Shown in pieces: positions 30,157-42,028 of a stretch of DNA of 64,000 nucleotides. A program made the position numbers and the translations under genes. The DNA comes from Chakrabartia godavariana (GTDB taxonomy: Bacteria; Pseudomonadota; Alphaproteobacteria; Sphingomonadales; Sphingomonadaceae). The notes under the pieces were generated by a model. It saw nothing but the letters and a program-made list of their open reading frames with translations, was not told where the DNA came from and did not search any database. Every line of letters begins with the position of its first letter. Positions within the stretch are counted from its first letter, which is position 1. Where the stretch lies: positions 850,452 through 914,451 of the forward strand of contig RKSN01000002.1 of assembly GCA_005518185.1 (NCBI GenBank). Reading direction: 5' to 3'.

Positions 30157-30699
30157 ATGATACGGCGCTTTTCGGTATTGCTCGTCCTAACCTCCCCGGC
30201 GGCAGCGCAGGGCGTCGGGCAACCGGCGCCGACGGTCGAGGATGTCATCACGCGACCGCTGGCCGATGTAAACCTGAAGCGCCGGGAGATGCCGCCCGAA
30301 CTGATCGCGATCCGCGACCATCCCTATGCCGCTGAAGCGCTGACCAGCTGTGCGGCCATCGGCGCCGAGATTGAAAAGCTCAACACCGCTCTCGGCCCGG
30401 ACTTTGATGAGGTCGAGGTTGATGAGGCCTCCCGCAAGCGCAAGGAGGACGTCGCCAATGCCGCCGGCGGGCTGGTGTCCAGCCTCATCCCCTTCCGTTC
30501 GCTGGTCCGGGAGATTTCAGGCGCCGGGCGGGCCGACCGCGATTACCGCGAAGCCCTCTATGCAGGGGTCGTCCGGCGCGGCTATCTGAAGGGACTGGGT
30601 CAGGCACGAAACTGTCCGGCCCCTGCGCGACCGCTCCACCCGCTGGAGGGGGCGGCCGGGGCGGCAGGACAGGCAATCAGGGGCGGGGATGACAAATGA
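30157..30699 (+). CDS. Secreted hypothetical protein
   Basis: A 180-residue protein with a short signal peptide (MIRRFSVLLVLTSPAAAQG). The mature part is charged and helical (SCAAIGAEIEKLNTALGPDF, then DEVEVDEASRKRKED), with a Gly-rich C-terminal tail. Two Cys residues (in LTSCAAIG and ARNCPAP) could pair. I do not recognise a domain. It has a fair ribosome site and overlaps the next gene by 11 bases on the same strand. Confidence 0.6.
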   Translation: MIRRFSVLLVLTSPAAAQGVGQPAPTVEDVITRPLADVNLKRREMPPELIAIRDHPYAAEALTSCAAIGAEIEKLNTALGPDFDEVEVDEASRKRKEDVANAAGGLVSSLIPFRSLVREISGAGRADRDYREALYAGVVRRGYLKGLGQARNCPAPARPLHPLEGAAGAAGQAIRGGDDK

Positions 30700-31879
30700 A
30701 GCGTCGCGGCTGGCAGCCGCAAAATGGCGGTTGAAGCTTGAGGACTGCAACAACACGGGCGACTTCCGGGAACTGGCGCGCAGGCGCCTGCCGGGGCCGG
30801 TATTTCACTATATCGACGGCGCCGCCGATGACGAGGTGACGCGCAGGCGCAATACCGAGAGCTTTGAGGCGTGTGACCTTGTGCCCAACGTGCTTGCCGG
30901 GGTCGCCGACATTGACATGCGCACGACCGTGATGGGCCGCGAGATTGCGATGCCTCTGTTCCTCTCCCCCACGGCGCTGCAGCGGGTGTTTCACTGGCAG
31001 GGGGAACGCGCCGTTGCCCGGGCCGCGGAAAAGTTCGGCACCTATTTCGGCATCTCCAGCCTTGCGACCGTCAGCATTGAGGAGATTGGCCGCACCATTT
31101 CCACCCCAAAGCTGTTCCAGCTCTACATCCACAAGGACAAGGGGCTGAACCATGCGATGGTGGAGGCGTGCAAGGCGGCGAAGTTCGATGCCATCGCGCT
31201 GACCGTCGACACGATCGTCAGCGGCAATCGTGAACGATGCATGCAGACGGGCTTCACCTCGCCACCCAGGCTGACCGTTGCGTCGGCCTTTGACTTCGCC
31301 CTCCACCCGCGCTGGACGCTCAATTACCTGCTGCGCGAAAAATTTGAGCTGTCGAACCTCAAGGACCATGTCGTCGAGGGCTCCAAACAGGCGATTTCGA
31401 TCCAGGACTATTTCAACACGATGCTCGACACGTCGATGGACTGGTCGACGGCAGAAAAGGTGCGCGCGGACTGGGGCGGCGAGTTCTGCCTCAAAGGCAT
31501 CATGTCGGTCGAGGATGCCCGGCGCGCGGTCGATATTGGCGCGACGGCCATCATGGTCTCCAACCATGGTGGGCGCCAGCTTGATGGCGGTCGTGCCCCG
31601 TTCGACCAGCTGGCGGAGATTGTCGATGCCGTCGGCGACAAGATCGACGTCATTTGCGACGGTGGCATCACGCGCGGCAGCCATGTTCTGAAGGCGCTGT
31701 CGGTCGGCGCCAAGGCCTGTTCGGGCGGGCGGCTCTATCTTTACGCGCTTGCCGCTGCCGGTCAGCCGGGGGTCGAGCGCGCGATCGGCAAGCTCCATGC
31801 GGAAATCGAACGCGGGATGCGGCTGATGGGCGCCCGGTCAGTGCGCGATCTCAGCCGGGAAAATCTGCGTTTCCGGTAA
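30689..31879 (+). CDS. FMN-dependent alpha-hydroxy acid dehydrogenase (LldD family)
   Basis: A 396-residue TIM-barrel flavoprotein that oxidises L-2-hydroxy acids such as L-lactate to keto acids. The family signature SNHGGRQLDGG holds the catalytic His and Arg; YIDGAADDE contains the substrate-binding Tyr, and SPTALQRVFHWQGE and the IDVICDGGITRG phosphate-binding strand are intact. It is probably a membrane-associated dehydrogenase that reduces quinones, as in LldD, but substrate choice among 2-hydroxy acids is uncertain. It is coupled to the upstream secreted protein. Confidence 0.87.
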   Translation: MTNEASRLAAAKWRLKLEDCNNTGDFRELARRRLPGPVFHYIDGAADDEVTRRRNTESFEACDLVPNVLAGVADIDMRTTVMGREIAMPLFLSPTALQRVFHWQGERAVARAAEKFGTYFGISSLATVSIEEIGRTISTPKLFQLYIHKDKGLNHAMVEACKAAKFDAIALTVDTIVSGNRERCMQTGFTSPPRLTVASAFDFALHPRWTLNYLLREKFELSNLKDHVVEGSKQAISIQDYFNTMLDTSMDWSTAEKVRADWGGEFCLKGIMSVEDARRAVDIGATAIMVSNHGGRQLDGGRAPFDQLAEIVDAVGDKIDVICDGGITRGSHVLKALSVGAKACSGGRLYLYALAAAGQPGVERAIGKLHAEIERGMRLMGARSVRDLSRENLRFR

Positions 31880-31950: not shown

Positions 31951-33549
31951 ATGACAGAGCGGGCAGCCGGGGCAACCGCACGCTACAAGGCGTTCATCAG
32001 CTATAGCCACAGGGACCTGACAGCAGCGGTGCGGCTGCATCGACGGCTGGAGGGATACCGCCTGCCCGCGCGTCTGGTCGGCACCGTCACCGCGCGCGGC
32101 GCGGTTCCGGCGCGCCTTACGCCTATCTTCCGCGACATTGACGAACTGCCCGCCGCCGATGACCTCAGCACCGAAATCAAGAGCGCGCTGGCGGACTCGG
32201 CCGCCCTCATCGTCCTGTGTTCGCCCGAAGCGCGGGCCTCACGCTGGGTCAACCGCGAGATCGAACTGTTCCGCGAATTGCATCCGGACCGGCCGATTTT
32301 ACCAGCGTTGGTGCGCGGCGACCCCGAGGAAGCCTTCCCGCCCGCGCTGTTCACCCCCGGCCCCGACGGGACACCGCGTGAGCCCGTCGCCTCCGACCTG
32401 CGCGGCGAGCAGGAAAGGCTCGGCCGGATCAAGCTGATCGCCGGGCTGACCGGCATTGGCGTCGATGATCTGGTGCAGCGTGATGCGCAGCGGCGGTTAC
32501 GCCGCGTGATGGCCGTCACAGCCTCTGCCATCATTGCCATTGTAATCCTGTCCGGCCTGCTGGTCGCGGCCCTGCGCGCTCGCGCCGAGGCCGAGCGGCA
32601 ACAGGCAGAGGCGGAAGGGTTGATCGAGTTCATGCTGACCGATTTGCGGGGACGCCTGAAAGGCGTGGGACGGCTGGACGTCATGAACGCGGTCAATGAA
32701 CGCGCCATGGGCTATTATGGCGAACAGGCGCTCGACACCCTGCCAGACCAGAGCCTCGAACGCCGCGCCCGCATCCTCCACGCCATGGGCGAAGATGATG
32801 AGGCACGCGGCGACCGGAAGGCCGCGCTCGCCAAGTTTACCGAAGCGCATCGCACCACATCCGCCATCGCCGCACGCAAGCCGAATGATGCGGAGACGCT
32901 CTTCGCCCATGCGCAGAGCGAATATTGGGTCGGCTATATGGCGTATCGGCAGAAGGATTTTGGAACAGCCCGCGCGCGGTTCCAGGGCTATTCCAAACTG
33001 GCGGACCGCATGGCGACGCTCAGCCCCGGCACGCTGCGCTATGTGCGCGAACAGGGCTATGCCCGCAGCAATCTGTGCGCACTCGCCCTGACCGCCGACG
33101 TGAAGGACCCCAGGCTGGCGGGCGACGCCTGCGCAGCCGCCGTACAGGCCAAAGTGCAGGTGGTCGCCCTTTCTCCCAAGGATGGGTCGGCGTTTTCCGA
33201 CCTTGCCAACAGCTATGGCTGGCTGGGCGATGCGTACAAGGCATCCGGGGATCGGCAGCGCGCGCGCCAGGCCTATCTCGCGGCGGCGGGTGCGATCGAC
33301 AAGGCCGTGAAACAGGACCCGCGCAATCTCGATTATCGTGACGTGTGGGTCACCCGTCAGTTCTCGCTGGCGGAAATGGAGCGCGAAGATGGCCGGTCCA
33401 CGGCCGCCCGCCAGAGGCTGGAAAATGCCCGCTCCATCGTGGCCGACATGATTGCGCGCGATCCGGCCAACCAGCTGTGGCGGGAACGCCTCGCCCAGCT
33501 GGAGCGCCGCCTTGCGACCCTGATGAAAAAAGAGAAGGAGAAAGCGTAA
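31951..33549 (+). CDS. TIR domain / transmembrane / TPR protein
   Basis: A 532-residue protein. Residues 12-135 form a bacterial TIR domain (KAFISYSHRDLTAAVRLH, then FRDIDELP, then VLCSPEARASRWVNREIELF). The Glu at 103, in the WVNRE motif, matches the catalytic Glu of TIR NADases. A membrane helix (about 187-209) is followed by the segment EGLIEFMLTDLRGRL, common to TIR-TPR proteins, and helical repeats of TPR type up to the Lys-rich C-terminus. The ATG at 31951 is preferred over an upstream TTG. The stop overlaps the next ORF (TAATG). NAD cleavage or cyclic-ADP-ribose signalling is possible but unproved. Confidence 0.85.
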   Translation: MTERAAGATARYKAFISYSHRDLTAAVRLHRRLEGYRLPARLVGTVTARGAVPARLTPIFRDIDELPAADDLSTEIKSALADSAALIVLCSPEARASRWVNREIELFRELHPDRPILPALVRGDPEEAFPPALFTPGPDGTPREPVASDLRGEQERLGRIKLIAGLTGIGVDDLVQRDAQRRLRRVMAVTASAIIAIVILSGLLVAALRARAEAERQQAEAEGLIEFMLTDLRGRLKGVGRLDVMNAVNERAMGYYGEQALDTLPDQSLERRARILHAMGEDDEARGDRKAALAKFTEAHRTTSAIAARKPNDAETLFAHAQSEYWVGYMAYRQKDFGTARARFQGYSKLADRMATLSPGTLRYVREQGYARSNLCALALTADVKDPRLAGDACAAAVQAKVQVVALSPKDGSAFSDLANSYGWLGDAYKASGDRQRARQAYLAAAGAIDKAVKQDPRNLDYRDVWVTRQFSLAEMEREDGRSTAARQRLENARSIVADMIARDPANQLWRERLAQLERRLATLMKKEKEKA

Positions 33550-34091
33550 TGACAGGTGCGACAGCCAAAACCATCATCCGCGAAATCGAAGCGTCCATCA
33601 CCGGCAACAAGTTCCGGCTTGGCTACAAGAACCCGCAAAAGCCCATTGACCTGCCGATGGATGCGGCGATCCAGCATGTCGTAAAGGGCCGCTATGCCCC
33701 GACCGAAGCCCAATGCGATGTCGAGGTGGAACCGCTGAGCCTCAATTGTGCGGCGCCGTCGAACATCATCTTCCTGTTGTCCGCCAAGGACAATTTCCAG
33801 TTCGCGACCGATGCCGACCCGATCCAGTTCAAGGAGGGCGCTGACCCGTCGCGCTATGCGAACTTCTGCCGCGTGGCGCCGGATGGCACCGCCTATCCGT
33901 TCGACAAGCCTTATGGCAGCGCCGAACCGTGCAAGATGGTGACGTTCGAAGCCGTTGCGCCGGCGGCCAATTATGTCGACCGTTTCAACTTCGTGGTCGA
34001 CGTCATTCACGAGAACAAGCCGGGCAAGAAGTCGCCGCTGCGGCTGCTCATCGATCCGGACATCCGCAATCCGGGCGGAAGCGGCGGTTGA
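33549..34091 (+). CDS. Unrecognised 180-aa protein between TIR and SLOG genes
   Basis: I do not recognise this family. The protein has no signal or membrane helix. It starts helical (AKTIIREIEASITGNKFRLG) and then looks beta-rich with four Cys residues (QCDVEVE, LNCAAPS, NFCRVAP, EPCKMVT). FVVDVIHENKPGKKSP and LLIDPDIRN are near the end. The start overlaps the TIR stop (TAATG), and the next gene begins 8 bases after its stop, so it belongs to the same three-gene unit. It may be a linker, sensor or substrate of the two flanking signalling proteins. Confidence 0.75.
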   Translation: MTGATAKTIIREIEASITGNKFRLGYKNPQKPIDLPMDAAIQHVVKGRYAPTEAQCDVEVEPLSLNCAAPSNIIFLLSAKDNFQFATDADPIQFKEGADPSRYANFCRVAPDGTAYPFDKPYGSAEPCKMVTFEAVAPAANYVDRFNFVVDVIHENKPGKKSPLRLLIDPDIRNPGGSGG

Positions 34092-34099
34092 TCGGCTGA

Positions 34100-35728
34100 A
34101 TGGACACACGTCGGGCATCCACGCGCAATCTGACGACAATCCTGGCCGCCGCGCGGTCAGGGGCGCTCGACCATGCCTGGCGCGAATTTACAGCGGCGGG
34201 CTTCGGACCGGAAGATCCGGACCCCGCCGTTCACACGCTCAACGGTCGTCTCCTGAAGGACCGGGCGCTGCGCGCGTCCGCCCCGGCCGACAGGCGTGCG
34301 TTCTTTGCGGCCGCCGCCGATGCCTATGCCCGCGCCGATGCGCTCTCGCCCGCGCCCTATCACCTGATCAACGTCGCAACGATGCGCTTCCTTGCCGGGG
34401 ATCAGGATGTCGCCGCGACGATTGCGGGCGACGTCCTGACGCGGATCGACACCGGTCAGGACATTGCCGAAACACCCTATTTTCTGGAGGCGACCCGCGC
34501 CGAGGCGCTGCTGCTCCGCCGCGATATCGACGCCGCCACACGCTCCATGCGCCGCGCGATCACTTTGGGGTCGAACTGGGAAGACCATGCCGTCACGCTG
34601 CGTCAGCTGAACCTCATCTGCGAAGCCAGCGACCTGCCATGTGACTGGCTGGATGCCTTTCGCCCGCCTGCCAGCCTGCATTTTGCGGGGCATCTGGGCG
34701 TCGCCGCAGACGATGGCGCCAATGCCGAACTGGTCGCCCGGATCGATGCCGTGCTGGAGGCCCATCGCGTCGGCTTCGGCTATGGCGCGCTGGCCGCCGG
34801 GTCTGACATCCTGATCGCCGAGCGACTGCTCGCGCGCGGGGCGGAGCTGCACGTGCTGCTGCCGATGTCGCGCGAGGCGTTTCGTGCGGCCTCGGTCGAA
34901 CCCTGGGCCGAAAACTGGGCCGCACGGTTCGAGGCCTGTGTCGATGCCGCGACGAGCGTGCGCGCCGTCAGCGACATCACCGGCCGCTATGACCCGATTG
35001 CCAACACGCTGGCGAGCGAGCTGTCGATGGGCGCCGCCGCGCTCAACGCCCGGCTCGTGGAAAGCCGCGCGGTCCAGCTGCTGATCGCCGATGAGGCGGG
35101 CGGCTCCTACGGATCCGGCCACGAAACCGCGCGCGACGGGGAGACATGGGCCGCCGCCGGTCGCGCGCAGGACATCATCCGCTGGCCGCGTCAGGTGGCC
35201 ACGCCGCCGGGCGGGGAAGGCGTGCACGACCATCCGGGCCGTCGCGTGGCCGCCATGCTCTTCGTCGGCTTTGCAGGGATCGAACAGATTGGCGATGCCG
35301 CCGCTGAAGCCTTCTACACCCAGACGCTCGCGCCGATCGAGGCGACGCTTGGCACGCTTGCGTCCCCGCCGTTCCTTCTGACGCGGCAGAGCGCGGGGTA
35401 TGCGCTTGCCTTCGACACGCCCGAACAGGCCGCGCGCGCTGCACTTGCGCTGCGCGATGCGGGCCATTCCGACGGGGCGGTCACACTGCGGATCAGCGGG
35501 CATTACGGCATCATCCTGCTGCGCGACGGCGCGGTGCTCGGCAATGCGGCCGCCCTTCCCGAATGGATCGACCCGGTCACGCAGCCCGGCGCGATCTTCG
35601 TGACAGCGGACTTTGCGACGGCGCTGTTCGGGCGGGTCACGTCGGGCTTTCGAACCGAATATGCGGGCGAGCACCTGCCCTTGCGCGGCAACATTGCCGT
35701 GGAACTCTACGCCCTGATGGAGGGCTGA
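34100..35728 (+). CDS. TPR-like / SLOG-like / degenerate nucleotidyl-cyclase fusion protein
   Basis: A 542-residue soluble protein in three parts. Residues 10-180 are helical repeats of TPR/TRAFs-binding type (LINVATMRFLAG, MRRAITLGSNWEDH). Residues 190-330 resemble a SLOG (LOG/DprA-like) nucleotide-binding domain: LHFAGHLGV, then GYGALAAGSDILIAERLLAR and LHVLLPMSREAFRAAS. Residues 382-540 align with class III cyclases, but the first metal Asp site reads FVGFAG (usually FADI) and the second SAGYALAF (usually GDG), so cyclase activity is unlikely. It ends the TIR-unknown-SLOG unit. The domain assignments are from pattern reading only. Confidence 0.7.
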   Translation: MDTRRASTRNLTTILAAARSGALDHAWREFTAAGFGPEDPDPAVHTLNGRLLKDRALRASAPADRRAFFAAAADAYARADALSPAPYHLINVATMRFLAGDQDVAATIAGDVLTRIDTGQDIAETPYFLEATRAEALLLRRDIDAATRSMRRAITLGSNWEDHAVTLRQLNLICEASDLPCDWLDAFRPPASLHFAGHLGVAADDGANAELVARIDAVLEAHRVGFGYGALAAGSDILIAERLLARGAELHVLLPMSREAFRAASVEPWAENWAARFEACVDAATSVRAVSDITGRYDPIANTLASELSMGAAALNARLVESRAVQLLIADEAGGSYGSGHETARDGETWAAAGRAQDIIRWPRQVATPPGGEGVHDHPGRRVAAMLFVGFAGIEQIGDAAAEAFYTQTLAPIEATLGTLASPPFLLTRQSAGYALAFDTPEQAARAALALRDAGHSDGAVTLRISGHYGIILLRDGAVLGNAAALPEWIDPVTQPGAIFVTADFATALFGRVTSGFRTEYAGEHLPLRGNIAVELYALMEG

Positions 35729-35732
35729 GGCC

Positions 35733-36389
35733 CTACGCCGCGAAGCGGGCGACGCGGTCTCCGGCGGGGACGTGGATGGCGACGATGCCGCCTATGGAGC
35801 GGATGATTTCGGGGTGTGTGGCGGCCATGCCGCCGGTCAGGGCGCCGAAGGACGGCAGGATGAGCTTGCGCGCGCCTTCCACGAAACAGGGCCGTGTCAC
35901 ACGCCGGCCGCGCGCGGCGCTGCTGTGTTTGGGGTGGAAATGTCCTGACAGTTCAGGGCGTTGATCCGCCGGATCGGCGTGGTGGCGCAACATCAGGCCG
36001 TCGACCTCAGCCTCCGCAATCACACGCCCCCCCACGGTCTCGGGCAGCGCTTCGTCATGATTGCCGGTGATCCAGACCCAGTCGAGCGCACCCGTCAGTC
36101 GCACGAGCGTGGCCCGGGCGTCGCCCGAGAGTCGCGCCGCGCCTGCGCTGTCATGGAAGTTGTCGCCCAGACACCAGACCTCCCGCGCGCCGGTTTCGGT
36201 GACGATCGCCGCGAGCGCGGAGAGCGTGGCGAGGCTGTCATGGGGCGGGAGCATCTGCCCGCGCGCGGCGAACCAGCTCGCCTTTTCAAGATGGAGGTCG
36301 GCGACGATCAGCGCGGCGCGCAGCGGCCAGAACAAAGCCTTGCCGCCCGCGACGCGAAAGTCATGTCCGGCAAAGTGCAGCGGCGGCAT
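35733..36389 (-). CDS. pdeM: Ligase-associated DNA damage response endonuclease PdeM
   Basis: A 218-residue metallophosphoesterase. The motifs VADLHLEK (DxH), LGDNFHD (GDxxH), TGNHDEAL (GNHD) and SGHFHPKHS (GHxH) are complete. The family usually lies beside an Lhr-like helicase, an ATP-dependent ligase and an exonuclease; here it stands without them. The ATG at 36389 overlaps the stop of the DUF3297 gene (TGATG) and has a GGAGG site; a GTG three bases earlier is possible. Confidence 0.8.
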   Translation of the reverse strand: MPPLHFAGHDFRVAGGKALFWPLRAALIVADLHLEKASWFAARGQMLPPHDSLATLSALAAIVTETGAREVWCLGDNFHDSAGAARLSGDARATLVRLTGALDWVWITGNHDEALPETVGGRVIAEAEVDGLMLRHHADPADQRPELSGHFHPKHSSAARGRRVTRPCFVEGARKLILPSFGALTGGMAATHPEIIRSIGGIVAIHVPAGDRVARFAA

Positions 36390-36652
36390 CACGCCTCCGG
36401 TGCGGACTCCGTGTCCGACGTTTCGTACCAGGCCTCAACCGGGCCGGTGAGCTTCAGCAGCAGGGGCTTGCCGCGCCGGTCCACCGTCTTGCCCGCCTGC
36501 ACGCGGACCCAGCCTTCGGACATGCAATATTCCTCGACATCGTGCCGCTGGATGCCGCGGAACTTGATGCCGACGCCACGGCGCAGCACCTCCACGTCGA
36601 AATGCGGGCTCGAAGGGTCGATCGAAAGGCGGTCAGGCGGCGTATCAGTCAT
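36389..36652 (-). CDS. DUF3297 family protein
   Basis: An 87-residue protein (TDTPPDRLSIDPSSPHFDVE, then GIKFRGIQRHDVEEYCMSEG and KLTGPVEAWY) that matches the DUF3297 pattern seen throughout alphaproteobacteria. The function is unknown. It lies upstream of pdeM on the same strand with a one-base overlap, so the two are probably cotranscribed. Longer in-frame reading upstream crosses the end of the TonB receptor and is rejected. Confidence 0.78.
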   Translation of the reverse strand: MTDTPPDRLSIDPSSPHFDVEVLRRGVGIKFRGIQRHDVEEYCMSEGWVRVQAGKTVDRRGKPLLLKLTGPVEAWYETSDTESAPEA

Positions 36653-39088: not shown

Positions 39089-42028
39089 ATGCGGCTCGGC
39101 TGGGATGAAATCCGCAGACGCGCCAAGGCGTTCAGCGAGAGGCACGCGACATCCAGTGACGAACGGGCCGATGCGCAGCTCTTCGTCAACGACTTCTTCC
39201 AGATGTTTGGCCTCTCCTCACGACAGATTGGCCGCTATGAGCGGCGCGTTACCGATGTCCTTCACAAGGAACGCGGCTTCATAGATTTTTTCTGGCCGGG
39301 CCAGATCATTGTCGAAATGAAGTCAGCAGGCAAAAGCCTCGCCGCCGCCGAGAAACAAGCGCTCGATTATATCGATGGGATCAAGAGTGCAGCCGAGAAG
39401 CCTCGCTTCGTGCTGGCCTGCAACTTTCAGCACTGGCGACTGGTTGATCTTGAGGAAAAACGTGATCTGGAATTTGCGCTCGCTGATCTGCCTAAGCACA
39501 TCAATGCGTTCGACTTCATCCACGGCCGAAAGGTCACTTTCGAAAATCAGGCCGATGTCACCATCAAGGCCGCCGAGCTTATGGGCCGCCTGCACGATGC
39601 GCTGGAGGAGTCGGGCTATACCGGGCATGATCTGGAACAGCTGCTCGTCCGGCTGCTCTTCTGTCTGTTTGCCGACGACACCGGCATCTTTCAGCCCAAG
39701 GACATCTTCCTCCAGCTGATCGACAATGACACGAAGGCGGACGGGAGTGACACGGGCAATGTGCTGGCCGAACTGTTCGAGGTGCTGGACACCCCCGAAG
39801 GGCAGCGGCTGAAAGGCACGGCGGCCGAGCTGGATGCCTTTCCCTATATCAACGGCCAGCTGTTCCGGCAGCGGCTGCGCATCCCGAAGTTCGATACGAA
39901 GATGCGCAACCATCTGCTCGATGCCGCCCGGCATGATTGGTCGAGCGTGTCCCCCGCCATTTTCGGGTCGCTGTTCCAATCGGTCATGGATGCCAAGGAA
40001 CGCCGGGCAAAGGGCGCACATTATACGACCGAGGCCAACATCCTGAAGGTCATCGGGCCGTTGTTCCTTGATGATCTGAAGGCCGAACTCGCCGCGATCA
40101 TCCAGCGTCGCACCGGGCGGGACAAGGCACTGGCCGAGTTTCAGAACAAGCTCACCCGGCTGACCTTCTTCGATCCGGCCTGCGGCTGTGGAAACTTTCT
40201 CGTCATCACCTATCGGGAAATCCGGCGGCTGGAGCTGGAGGCGCTGAAGGCGCAATATGGCGATCAGCAGATCGACGCCGCCCTCCTGTCCCGCGTGACC
40301 GTCGATCAGTTCTACGGCATCGAATATGAGGAGTTTCCCGCCCGCATCGCCGAAGTCGCGATGTGGATGATGGACCATATCGCCAACAATGAGATCAATG
40401 AGGCCTTCCGCCTCAACTATGCCCGCATCCCGTTGAGCTATACCGCGCACATCTTCCACGGCGATGCGCTGGAGGTGGAATGGGCTGACCTGCTGCCGCC
40501 GGAAAAATGCAGCTACATCATGGGCAACCCGCCCTTTGTCGGCGCGAAGTTCCAGACCGAACCCCAACGCGCCCAGGTCCGCCGCATCGCAGGCCTCGGC
40601 GGCAGCGGCGGAACGCTCGATTATGTGGCGGCGTGGTTCATCAAGGCCGGACAATATCTGAATGGCTTCTCTTCTCCCCTCCCGCTTGCGGGAGGGGCCG
40701 GGGGAGGGCTCGAGGCGGAGCCCAACGGGCGCGACCTCGCGGTCGCGCACCCTCCCCTAACCCCTCCCGCAAGCGGGAGGGGAAATAAGCGCATCCGCAT
40801 CGCCTTCGTGTCGACCAATTCCATCTGTCAGGGGGAACAGGTGGCCCAGCTCTGGCCGATCCTGTTTGACAGGTGCGGGCTGGAAATCGCCTTTGCCCAC
40901 CGGACCTTCAGCTGGGGCAGCGAGGCGCGCGGCAAGGCCCATGTCCATGTCATCATCGTCGGACTCGCGCACCGCGACCATGAACCCGACGAAAAGCGGC
41001 TGTTCAGCTATCCCGATATCAAGGGCGATCCGGTGGAAAGCCGCCACGGCGCGCTGACCGCCTATCTGTTCGACGCCCGCAGCGTCGCCAACCGGCATCT
41101 GGTGGTGAAGGAAGAGGCACGGCCAATCAATGGGGCTCCAAGACTCATCACAGGCACGCAGCCGATTGATGGCGACCATCTGAAGTTTGACGCAACCGAG
41201 CGGGCCAGATTCTTGGAAGCCGAACCAGCCGCAGCTCAGTATTTGAGACCTTACATTGGCGCACGAGAATTCATTCGGGATGAAGTTAAGTGGATCCTCT
41301 ATCTCAAGGATATTGCCCCTGATGAGCTAAAGCGGCTCCCCGAAACCATGAAACGGGTCGCCGCTGTTCGCCAGTTTCGCATGGACAGCAGTAGAGCAGC
41401 ATCCAATCAGATTGCGGATTACCCAACACAGTTCGGCATCTCGGTCGTCCCGAAATCACCGTTTCTGGTTATCCCGCAGGTCAGCTCTGAACGCCGTGAC
41501 TATGCGCCGTTTGGTTGGCTTGAGCCGCCGATCATACCCAGTGAGAAGCTCCGTCTAATCTACGACGCCAGCGTTTGGGATTTCGGCATCCTCACCAGCA
41601 CCATGCACATGGCTTGGATGAAGGCGATCACAGGCCGGATGAAATCCGATTTCATGTATTCAGTCGGCGTCGTCTACAACACCTTCCCTTGGCCCGACGC
41701 GTCGCCTGCGCAGCGGGAGAAGATTGAGGCGCTGGCGCAGGCGGTGCTCGATGCGCGGGCCAGCCATCCGACTTCCAGCCTTGCCGACCTCTATGATCCG
41801 GACACGATGCCCGCCAATCTCCGCCGCGCGCACGCAGCACTCGATGCGGCGGTGGACCGGCTCTACCGCCCCGCCCCCTTCGCCAGCGACCGCGACCGGG
41901 TGGAGCATCTGTTCGGCCGCTACGAAGCGCTGGTCAATCCGCTCGAACGCCTCGGCGCCGCCAAGAACGCCCGCGTGGCCAAGAAGGCGGCGCGATCCGT
42001 TGATGACAAGGAAAAGGACCCCCGATGA
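39089..42028 (+). CDS. Type IIL (MmeI-like) restriction-modification enzyme
   Basis: A 979-residue single-chain RM protein. The N-terminal nuclease has D66 and E76-x-K78 (GFIDFFWPG...VEMKS), the PD-ExK core. The methyltransferase follows with motif I FFDPACGCGNF (about 360-370) and motif IV NPPF at 480-483, of the adenine-N6 type, and VAFVSTNSICQGEQV as in the family. Residues about 528-565 come from a palindromic repeat inserted in frame. The C-terminal target-recognition region (about 690-870) is lower in GC than the rest. No separate specificity gene is present, as expected for type IIL. It probably cuts at a fixed distance from its site. Function could be affected by the insert. Confidence 0.86.
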   Translation: MRLGWDEIRRRAKAFSERHATSSDERADAQLFVNDFFQMFGLSSRQIGRYERRVTDVLHKERGFIDFFWPGQIIVEMKSAGKSLAAAEKQALDYIDGIKSAAEKPRFVLACNFQHWRLVDLEEKRDLEFALADLPKHINAFDFIHGRKVTFENQADVTIKAAELMGRLHDALEESGYTGHDLEQLLVRLLFCLFADDTGIFQPKDIFLQLIDNDTKADGSDTGNVLAELFEVLDTPEGQRLKGTAAELDAFPYINGQLFRQRLRIPKFDTKMRNHLLDAARHDWSSVSPAIFGSLFQSVMDAKERRAKGAHYTTEANILKVIGPLFLDDLKAELAAIIQRRTGRDKALAEFQNKLTRLTFFDPACGCGNFLVITYREIRRLELEALKAQYGDQQIDAALLSRVTVDQFYGIEYEEFPARIAEVAMWMMDHIANNEINEAFRLNYARIPLSYTAHIFHGDALEVEWADLLPPEKCSYIMGNPPFVGAKFQTEPQRAQVRRIAGLGGSGGTLDYVAAWFIKAGQYLNGFSSPLPLAGGAGGGLEAEPNGRDLAVAHPPLTPPASGRGNKRIRIAFVSTNSICQGEQVAQLWPILFDRCGLEIAFAHRTFSWGSEARGKAHVHVIIVGLAHRDHEPDEKRLFSYPDIKGDPVESRHGALTAYLFDARSVANRHLVVKEEARPINGAPRLITGTQPIDGDHLKFDATERARFLEAEPAAAQYLRPYIGAREFIRDEVKWILYLKDIAPDELKRLPETMKRVAAVRQFRMDSSRAASNQIADYPTQFGISVVPKSPFLVIPQVSSERRDYAPFGWLEPPIIPSEKLRLIYDASVWDFGILTSTMHMAWMKAITGRMKSDFMYSVGVVYNTFPWPDASPAQREKIEALAQAVLDARASHPTSSLADLYDPDTMPANLRRAHAALDAAVDRLYRPAPFASDRDRVEHLFGRYEALVNPLERLGAAKNARVAKKAARSVDDKEKDPR
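40672..40785. repeat. Palindromic repeat inserted in frame in the RM gene
   Basis: An inverted-repeat element of about 114 bases. The left arm (40672-40708) contains CCCCTCCCGCTTGCGGGAGG and the right arm (40750-40785) CCCCTCCCGCAAGCGGGAGG, complementary with small differences. Both arms are themselves palindromic. The element keeps the frame and adds about 38 residues rich in Pro, Gly and Ala (PLAGGAGGG...LTPPASGRG), just after the NPPF domain region of the methyltransferase. Confidence 0.85.

What the first reader, a model, noticed from the sequence alone, without database searches (positions are those of the whole stretch)
31951..35728. Compact TIR / unknown / TPR-SLOG-pseudocyclase unit, a candidate signalling or defence system
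Seen: three genes with a 1-base overlap and an 8-base gap, encoding a TIR-TM-TPR protein with a Glu in WVNRE, a 180-aa orphan, and a fusion of helical repeats, a LOG/SLOG-like Rossmann segment (ALAAGSDILIAERLLARGAE) and a cyclase-like domain. Established knowledge: SLOG and TIR domains occur in nucleotide-based bacterial conflict systems, and TIR enzymes cleave NAD+. Inference: the SLOG protein senses or binds a nucleotide made or released by the TIR protein at the membrane. I know of no described system with exactly this arrangement.
Basis: partly seen in the sequence, partly recalled or inferred. Interest (0 to 1): 0.8.

Follow-up and report, generated by a model that had tools for sequence, protein, structure and literature searches.

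The report
Bacterial TIR module with swappable sensor

Summary
Genes, overlaps and domains are as described. The "orphan" matches Pfam pNTSase1 and protein 3 begins with Pfam TPR-S, so this belongs to a predicted TIR/TPR-S conflict class (naming paper recalled, not held). AlphaFold gives protein 3 a TPR, a SLOG-type Rossmann and a cyclase fold (pLDDT 92.8); the cyclase's metal Asp pair and Arg are lost. The middle protein is predicted as a beta-sandwich, which does not fit "nucleotide synthetase". The unit is a discrete insert: five congeners have lldD and pdeM adjacent. Among 127 distinct loci chosen by protein-3 homology, 83 have TIR, middle gene and protein 3 together. New here: (1) a Crp-like gene lies beside the unit in 99 of 127; in this genus it is unlinked but present in 4 of 5 module-bearing and 0 of 8 other genomes; (2) cyclase Asp pair and Crp cNMP pocket were lost together, essentially once; (3) in Kordiimonas and Sphingomonas pairs, though not in the window's clade, the TIR protein's TPR half plus the middle gene is replaced as one block. 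Best reading: a polymorphic TIR recognition system. Function untested.

The parts
31951..33549 (+). TIR-TM-TPR protein, 532 aa: TIR domain with Glu103, TM 187-205, weak C-terminal TPR region
   Evidence: Pfam TIR_2 1.2e-11; Glu103 in 96 of 96 homologues that reach it, of 102; hydropathy
32608..33546 (+). TPR half of the TIR protein (about residue 220 onward): the part that in other lineages is exchanged together with the middle gene
   Evidence: in relatives; in the window's own clade synonymous divergence is even and shows no exchange
33549..34091 (+). Middle protein, 180 aa, Pfam pNTSase1; predicted beta-sandwich with C-terminal IDPDIRNPGG tail
   Evidence: 1.2e-6; 31 of 49 family members match PF20301 at E <= 0.01; AF2 pLDDT 80.6, pTM 0.81; Asp169-Pro170 invariant in 49 rows
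34130..34660 (+). TPR-S region of protein 3 (residues 11-187)
   Evidence: Pfam TPR-S 4.6e-8 at residues 14-95, 60 of 61 family members at E <= 0.01; AF2 helices
34670..35182 (+). SLOG-type Rossmann domain of protein 3 (residues 191-361), motif GALAAGSD at 229-236
   Evidence: AF2; DprA-like Foldseek match; weak LOG profile match; G229, A232, G234, D236, P255, F261, S265, W273 identical in 141 of 141 rows
35240..35725 (+). Degenerate class III cyclase domain (residues 381-542): metal Asp pair replaced by Gly and Ala, catalytic Arg by Trp
   Evidence: Foldseek and profile hits to Ma1120 and Rv1264; catalytic columns G/A/W
30689..31879 (+). Flanking gene lldD (L-lactate dehydrogenase; name recalled), left border of the insert
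   Evidence: adjacent to pdeM in 5 module-free members of the genus
35733..36392 (-). Flanking gene pdeM (phosphoesterase; name recalled), right border; it stands where most relatives carry the Crp-like gene

Best explanation
A discrete accessory TIR/pNTSase1/TPR-S module that most likely acts as an NAD-based conflict (immune) system. The variable TPR half of the membrane-anchored TIR protein and the beta-sandwich middle protein form a matched recognition cassette for a foreign or non-self cue. A cue releases the TIR domain, whose Glu103 cleaves NAD+. The ADP-ribose-type product is bound by the TPR-S/SLOG protein. In the ancestral form its cyclase domain then made a cyclic nucleotide read by the convergent Crp-like factor. 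In the window's large clade the cyclase and the Crp pocket are both lost, so here the pseudocyclase probably passes the signal by protein contact, to the unlinked Crp-like factor or back to TIR. Shown: gene structure, conservation, insertion site, co-occurrence, shared loss of cyclase and Crp residues, block exchange in relatives; folds are predictions. Inferred: NADase activity, ligand of SLOG, role of the middle protein, immune function.
For: TIR Glu103 in 96 of 96 homologues that reach it. SLOG-type fold and invariant loop. Unit absent from 5 congeners with lldD-pdeM 14-21 bp apart. TIR + middle + TPR-S in 83 of 127 distinct loci; Crp-like gene within 1.5 kb in 99 of 127. Unlinked Crp orthologue in the window's genome and, at 80-87% identity, in 3 of the 4 other module-bearing genomes of the genus, against 0 of 8 without the module. 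All 82 distinct loci with an eroded cyclase and a Crp lack the pocket Arg; 15 of 17 with both cyclase Asp keep Arg and Glu (87 of 87 and 20 of 22 before removing duplicates). Block exchange in L044/L047: DNA identity 93-99% over the TIR domain, 41-63% over most of the TPR half and the start of the middle gene, 72-75% over its end, 87-99% over protein 3; dS 0.17 in TIR, saturated in TPR half and middle gene, 0.17/0.38/0.27 in TPR-S/SLOG/cyclase. Given the backbone, middle-gene identity follows TIR-TPR identity (partial r 0.30 over all pairs, 0.42-0.50 in the two closest bins), not cyclase identity (0.00-0.11).
Against: No experiment. The shared loss is about one event on the tree (1 change for the Crp pocket, 4 for the cyclase), so the strong 2x2 table is not many independent cases. 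No exchange is seen in the window's own clade, nor in L121/L137 or L147/L155. Module-bearing G676 lacks the Crp orthologue (590 contigs). 33 of 127 distinct loci have no TIR gene of this family upstream (19 none near, 10 downstream, 4 at a contig edge) and 11 more have TIR but no middle ORF. PADLOC does not name the system; neighbour enrichment is weak; 1 of 72,556 plasmid records and 0 of 50,697 phage records carry a relative.
Confidence: 0.45

Rival explanations
1. Toxin with matched immunity protein: the middle protein is a cognate inhibitor that binds the TPR half of the TIR NADase, and TPR-S/SLOG/Crp only control expression. The co-exchanged block is then a toxin-antitoxin interface.
For: Middle gene and TIR TPR half change together; the two genes overlap by one base; small middle protein with a predicted beta-sandwich and hardly any invariant residue.
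Against: The constant TIR catalytic domain is not part of the exchanged block; the best-conserved part is the SLOG/TPR-S protein, which a simple pair does not need. No direct test.
Confidence: 0.25
2. Self/non-self or kin recognition between strains rather than phage defence: the polymorphic cassette is the allele that is compared.
For: Replacement of the cassette between otherwise near-identical operons in Kordiimonas and Sphingomonas.
Against: No surface or secreted partner was seen; the middle proteins were not tested for export; the side of the membrane of the TPR half is undetermined (32 of 72 proteins with more positive charge before the TM; 18 of 90 were skipped by the script).
Confidence: 0.12
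3. Ordinary sensory regulation: a membrane TPR sensor, a cyclase-like protein and a Crp-type factor control metabolism or envelope stress, with no role in conflict.
For: Crp-like gene beside the unit in 99 of 127 distinct loci; the genes read around it in the window look mostly like housekeeping genes (names by eye); 1 plasmid and 0 phage records.
Against: Patchy presence (63 of 296 genomes of the order), clean empty sites and block exchange fit conflict loci better than core regulation.
Confidence: 0.15
4. The middle protein is a nucleotide synthetase, as its Pfam name says, and makes the signal.
For: 31 of 49 middle proteins match PF20301, best 1.1e-66.
Against: Only Asp169-Pro170 is invariant in 49 rows; predicted mostly beta fold with one helix; the best PDB matches by probability are PixA inclusion-body proteins, E from 7.9e-3, TM 0.37-0.46; no nucleotidyltransferase-fold chain recognised among the 50 listed (rank 23 is a 120-residue chain of a FAM46C/nanobody complex, presumably the nanobody).
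Confidence: 0.05

Closest known systems
Predicted TPR-S conflict systems (Burroughs and Aravind 2020, J Bacteriol; recalled, not held)
   Same: Pfam TPR-S (60 of 61 family members) and pNTSase1 (31 of 49) with a TIR gene in one unit
   Different: Whether that paper shows this exact gene order, the Crp-like gene or the exchanged cassette could not be read; the middle protein does not look like a synthetase
Thoeris (ThsB TIR + ThsA SLOG-SIR2)
   Same: TIR protein plus SLOG-type protein; ThsB_TIR Pfam match 7.3e-9. PMC9503650 (passages) says ThsB makes variant cADPR that the SLOG of ThsA recognises
   Different: No SIR2 match in protein 3; PADLOC ThsB models only E 0.015-0.027; SLOG is fused to TPR-S and a cyclase fold
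Pycsar (nucleotide cyclase + cNMP-gated effector; features recalled)
   Same: Class III cyclase fold with a cNMP-binding-type partner in the ancestral form
   Different: The partner is a Crp-type regulator and TIR is a separate gene; PADLOC gives no match for protein 3; cyclase residues lost in the window
ASK1 (MAP3K5) TPR region
   Same: Pfam MAP3K_TRAF_bd in 36 of 61 family members, best 5.8e-12; weak profile hit to 5ulm, E 0.39. [quoted passage not shown]
   Different: No kinase; in the window itself the match is not significant (E 0.24)
PixA inclusion-body proteins (PF12306)
   Same: Nearest solved fold of the middle protein (4lzk, 4pib)
   Different: Weak (TM below 0.5, no match with E <= 0.001); no PixA chain found by profile; PF12306 itself in 1 of 200 genomes of the phylum and not in the window's

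Membership tests
TIR/TPR-S/pNTSase1 predicted conflict system | TPR-S domain (PF20308) over its cut-off | tested here: met
   34 bits against 27.6
TIR/TPR-S/pNTSase1 predicted conflict system | pNTSase1 (PF20301) over its cut-off in a neighbouring gene | tested here: met
   29 bits against 25
TIR/TPR-S/pNTSase1 predicted conflict system | TIR domain gene in the same unit | tested here: met
   TIR_2 1.2e-11
TIR/TPR-S/pNTSase1 predicted conflict system | pNTSase1 is a nucleotide-making enzyme (by its Pfam name) | tested here: inconclusive
   predicted beta-sandwich and a single invariant Asp-Pro speak against it; activity itself not testable here
TIR/TPR-S/pNTSase1 predicted conflict system | anti-invader activity | not testable with these tools
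   none
SLOG superfamily | Rossmann-like fold related to LOG/DprA | tested here: met
   LOG profile weak (E 2.4e-4, probability 43.7), DprA profile no match; no SLOG entry among the 50 PDB matches listed
SLOG superfamily | binds or cleaves a nucleotide | not testable with these tools
   conserved GxLAxGxD loop only
TIR NADase | catalytic Glu at the expected place | tested here: met
   Glu103 in 96 of 96 that reach it, of 102; that this equals the SARM1 catalytic Glu is recalled
TIR NADase | NAD+ cleavage | not testable with these tools
   none
Thoeris | ThsA effector (SIR2 or TM fused to SLOG; recalled) | tested here: not met
   no such family in protein 3
Pycsar | active nucleotide cyclase | tested here: not met
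   both metal Asp and Arg replaced in the window; PADLOC no match
Pycsar | cNMP-binding effector in the operon | tested here: not met
   cNMP-type domain only in a Crp-like regulator, unlinked in this genome
Class III nucleotide cyclase | fold | tested here: met
Class III nucleotide cyclase | metal-binding Asp pair and Arg | tested here: not met
   Gly, Ala, Trp

The most novel reading that the evidence does not exclude
A bacterial innate-immune receptor with a recombining recognition cassette: a constant TIR catalytic domain, an exchangeable block (TPR half + beta-sandwich partner) and a constant SLOG relay, coupled to a cyclase-to-Crp transcriptional branch that has decayed in one large clade into a pseudo-cyclase/pseudo-receptor pair which is nevertheless kept by selection and inherited together even when unlinked.
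Probability: 0.3. Interest if true: 0.82.

Novelty: new variant of a known kind. Interest (0 to 1): 0.6.

Why it matters
If right, it gives an experimentally tractable bacterial TIR receptor in which catalytic and recognition parts are separated by natural recombination breakpoints, so the trigger could be sought by comparing near-identical alleles. It also links TIR signalling to a cyclic-nucleotide and Crp branch, and offers a case where an enzyme and its receptor lost the residues for their small molecule together but stayed partners. It puts in question the Pfam name of the middle family (nucleotide synthetase).

Tried and rejected
First genome-contig scan with the single protein found nothing; the profile A1 then gave 80 loci. 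PHROGs gave no match for proteins 2 and 3 and only weak unnamed ones for protein 1. Phmmer of the middle protein against PDB: none; profile A2: two chance-level hits (E 0.96 and 1.8). PF20301 alone is a poor finder of the family: 4 of 398 genomes. DprA profile against SLOG: no match (after one search had picked wrong ORFs). Independent-pairs test of the shared loss: only 3 pairs, 1 informative, so not significant as repeated evolution. Membrane topology by charge: undecided. Defence-island test: 139 neighbour proteins of 20 loci against 147 proteins of 20 control regions; the test list has a CBASS cyclase, 2TM effector, RtcR-type, SspH, AbiTii, TIR and mad3/mad8 models; the control list has UvrD-type (GajB), IetA, TRIP13 and RTasHel models, which look generic; too few to claim enrichment, and only the first 25 of 38 and of 68 families are shown. 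A per-domain dS table used wrong TIR borders for Sphingomonas rows, so that L127/L130 showed TIR dS 0; recomputed on alignment columns (0.25), the block pattern stands.

Paper searches in the held library found no description of this arrangement: TPR-S or pNTSase as words, SLOG with TIR, nucleotide synthetase and conflict systems, SMODS/SLOG/cyclase/TIR, ASK signalosome, AidA/PixA with TIR, TIR with Crp, cyclase, SLOG and antiphage (0 papers), TRAFs-binding domain, hypervariable TIR, phrases of the 2020 paper. I read listings and, where cited, passages; most subscription journals are missing from the library.

Rows dropped: A2 used 48 of the 52 middle ORFs listed (53; L134 set aside as a short, doubtful ORF; L113, L140, L152, L164 left out by hand) plus the window. 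A3 used 60 of 80 loci plus the window, A1 46 of 60 plus the window. One search used 78 loci after removing duplicates and truncated TIR rows. The 141 loci come from two overlapping sources and contain duplicates; 127 are distinct. In the neighbour test one protein cut by the locus end was dropped to stay under the residue limit.
Full report
Observation. The three ORFs lie at 31951-33549, 33549-34091 and 34100-35728 on the + strand with a 1-base overlap and an 8-base gap. Pfam finds TIR_2 and ThsB_TIR in protein 1, pNTSase1 (PF20301) in protein 2 and TPR-S (PF20308) in protein 3. PADLOC gives only weak TIR-type hits to protein 1 (best 2e-6, a SAVED-TIR model) and none to the others. That both Pfam names come from Burroughs and Aravind 2020 on predicted prokaryotic immune systems is recalled; the paper is not held.

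Protein 3. AlphaFold with 61 sequences gives pLDDT 92.8 and pTM 0.92, with helices to residue 187, a Rossmann domain at 191-361 and a cyclase fold at 381-541. Foldseek against PDB lists only cyclases among its first 50 (Rv1264, Ma1120 first), so it is silent on the Rossmann part. Against viral models a DprA-like phage protein is rank 5 (E 1.6e-3, TM 0.73 by target; the aligned part is not shown). A profile comparison aligns the Rossmann part with LOG proteins at E 2.4e-4 but a probability of only 43.7; DprA gives nothing (E 0.25); controls give 0.31 to 0.57. G229, A232, G234, D236, P255, F261, S265 and W273 are identical in 141 of 141 rows, L231 in 140. I take it as SLOG-type. The cyclase's two metal-binding Asp and its Arg are Gly, Ala and Trp in the window. 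The domain is still under purifying selection (dN 0.23, dS 1.45 against L093).

Middle protein. 31 of 49 family members match pNTSase1 at E <= 0.01. Only Asp169-Pro170 is invariant. The AlphaFold model (pLDDT 80.6, pTM 0.81) is mostly beta with one helix; the nearest PDB entries are PixA inclusion-body proteins, E from 7.9e-3 and TM 0.37-0.46, which is weak. A nucleotide synthetase is therefore unlikely, though activity was not tested. In 71 of 83 distinct loci the protein has a hydrophobic-Asp-Pro motif in its last 60 residues; others end with an HxGIHPP-type tail or something else.

Distribution. 63 of 296 genomes of the order have a protein-3 homologue, in 26 of 79 genera. A profile scan of species genomes gave 272 relatives among 293 candidate stretches, of which the best 80 were fetched; their titles name Alphaproteobacteria, 'Proteobacteria bacterium' or 'uncultured bacterium'. 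Of 127 distinct loci chosen by protein-3 homology, 83 have TIR upstream with a middle ORF, 11 TIR upstream without one, 10 TIR downstream, 19 no TIR of this family nearby, and 4 are cut by a contig end. Plasmids: 1 of 72,556 records (61% of the query, 38% identity); phages: 0 of 50,697.

Insertion. In the window's genus 5 of 13 genomes carry the unit (window's G000, G673, G680, G676, G683; protein 3 at 72-75% identity); G674 has a distant relative (34%) elsewhere and 7 have none. In G000, G673, G680 and G683 the unit lies between lldD and pdeM; in G676 the contig ends inside the TIR gene. In G672, G675, G677, G678 and G679 lldD and pdeM are adjacent with 14-21 bp between the aligned ends. In G681 and G682 the two border genes lie on different contigs.

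Fourth gene. Downstream of protein 3 a Crp-type gene lies within 1.5 kb in 109 of 141 loci, 106 of them on the opposite strand; 99 of 127 distinct. Seven of its members were scanned against Pfam and all show HTH_Crp_2; cNMP_binding is over its cut-off in six and below it in L153. The window's genome has an orthologue about 50 kb upstream of the unit, outside the window, at G000:C2:831215-831886, with 80-87% matches in G673, G680 and G683 (in G683 in two overlapping pieces) and nothing above 27% identity in the 8 genomes without the module; G676 lacks it. So it occurs in 4 of 5 module-bearing and 0 of 8 other genomes; these genomes are related, so this is not a count of independent events.

Shared loss. 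Where the cyclase keeps both Asp, the Crp keeps the Glu and Arg of the cNMP pocket in 20 of 22 loci; where it is eroded, in 0 of 87, the Arg being lost in each and the Glu kept in some (distinct loci 15 of 17 and 0 of 82). That these are the pocket residues is recalled from known Crp proteins. On a quick tree of TPR-S + SLOG columns this is 1 change for the pocket and 4 for the cyclase. It is best read as one shared loss in a large clade that includes the window. It supports a former cyclase-cNMP-Crp branch but is no statistical proof.

Exchangeable cassette. Given the identity of TIR domain, TPR-S and SLOG, middle-gene identity follows the identity of the TIR protein's TPR half (partial r 0.30 over all 3003 pairs of 78 loci, 0.36-0.50 in closer bins) and not that of the cyclase (0.00-0.11). 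Pairs of loci are not independent and no permutation test was run. dS is 0.17 in TIR, saturated in the TPR half and the middle gene, 0.17 in TPR-S, 0.38 in SLOG and 0.27 in cyclase. Sphingomonas pairs show the same block at lower contrast: L120/L127 dS 0.13, 0.68, 1.80, 0.10, 0.16, 0.27 and L127/L130 0.25, 0.68, 1.29, 0.11, 0.35, 0.49 for TIR, TPR half, middle, TPR-S, SLOG, cyclase. High synonymous divergence points to replacement by recombination rather than selection on single codons. The window against L093, L093 against L094, L121/L137 and L147/L155 show no such jump; in L073/L074 only the middle gene jumps. The break in L044 lies roughly 35-85 residues after its TM segment at 196-214.

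Mechanism and novelty. My best reading is a TIR recognition system with a matched, exchangeable sensor pair, a SLOG relay, and a cyclase/Crp output that is now a pseudo-pair in this clade. The strongest rival is a toxin with a cognate inhibitor. The arrangement is a new variant of a predicted kind; the Crp partner, the shared loss and the cassette exchange were not found described in the held papers by the searches. Papers: PMC7159879, PMC7824862, PMC9503650 and PMC8195603, passages only; PMC9060813, abstract and outline, on a Burkholderia protein of dimeric beta-structure proposed as a DNA mimic; its link to PDB entry 4lzk is not established here.

Noticed in passing
window 39089-42028 (+): Type IIG restriction enzyme-methyltransferase (PADLOC E 0) 3.4 kb downstream, with a TonB-type receptor (by eye) between.
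   Followed up: partly
L096, L097, L099 (Croceicoccus): Rearranged order: protein 3, convergent Crp-like gene, then TIR and a 136-137-aa protein that may be another middle protein; the L096 copy has no Pfam match.
   Followed up: partly
L098, L100, L101, L103, L108 and others, several of them Novosphingobium: Loci without upstream TIR in which protein 3 has a small exported-looking protein nearby upstream (UrcA-like, recalled name; 15 loci, five of them with TIR downstream), mostly with the convergent Crp-like gene.
   Followed up: partly
L046 and L146 (same contig by length): TIR gene reduced to about 75 codons and no middle ORF found, while protein 3 and the Crp-like gene are kept: probably a decaying copy.
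   Followed up: no
L069, L082, L085, L087, L090; also L270 (G674): Two-gene relatives: TIR directly overlapping or touching a TPR-S/SLOG/cyclase gene with both metal Asp kept and no Crp-like neighbour; in L270 only the pair itself was seen.
   Followed up: no
L171:3541-5556 (-): Divergently placed TIR-CHASE2 protein beside a protein-3 homologue.
   Followed up: no
middle proteins L058, L059, L065, L072-L074, L091, L164: A second type of C-terminal tail (HxGxHPP or related, some His-rich) in place of the IDP tail.
   Followed up: no
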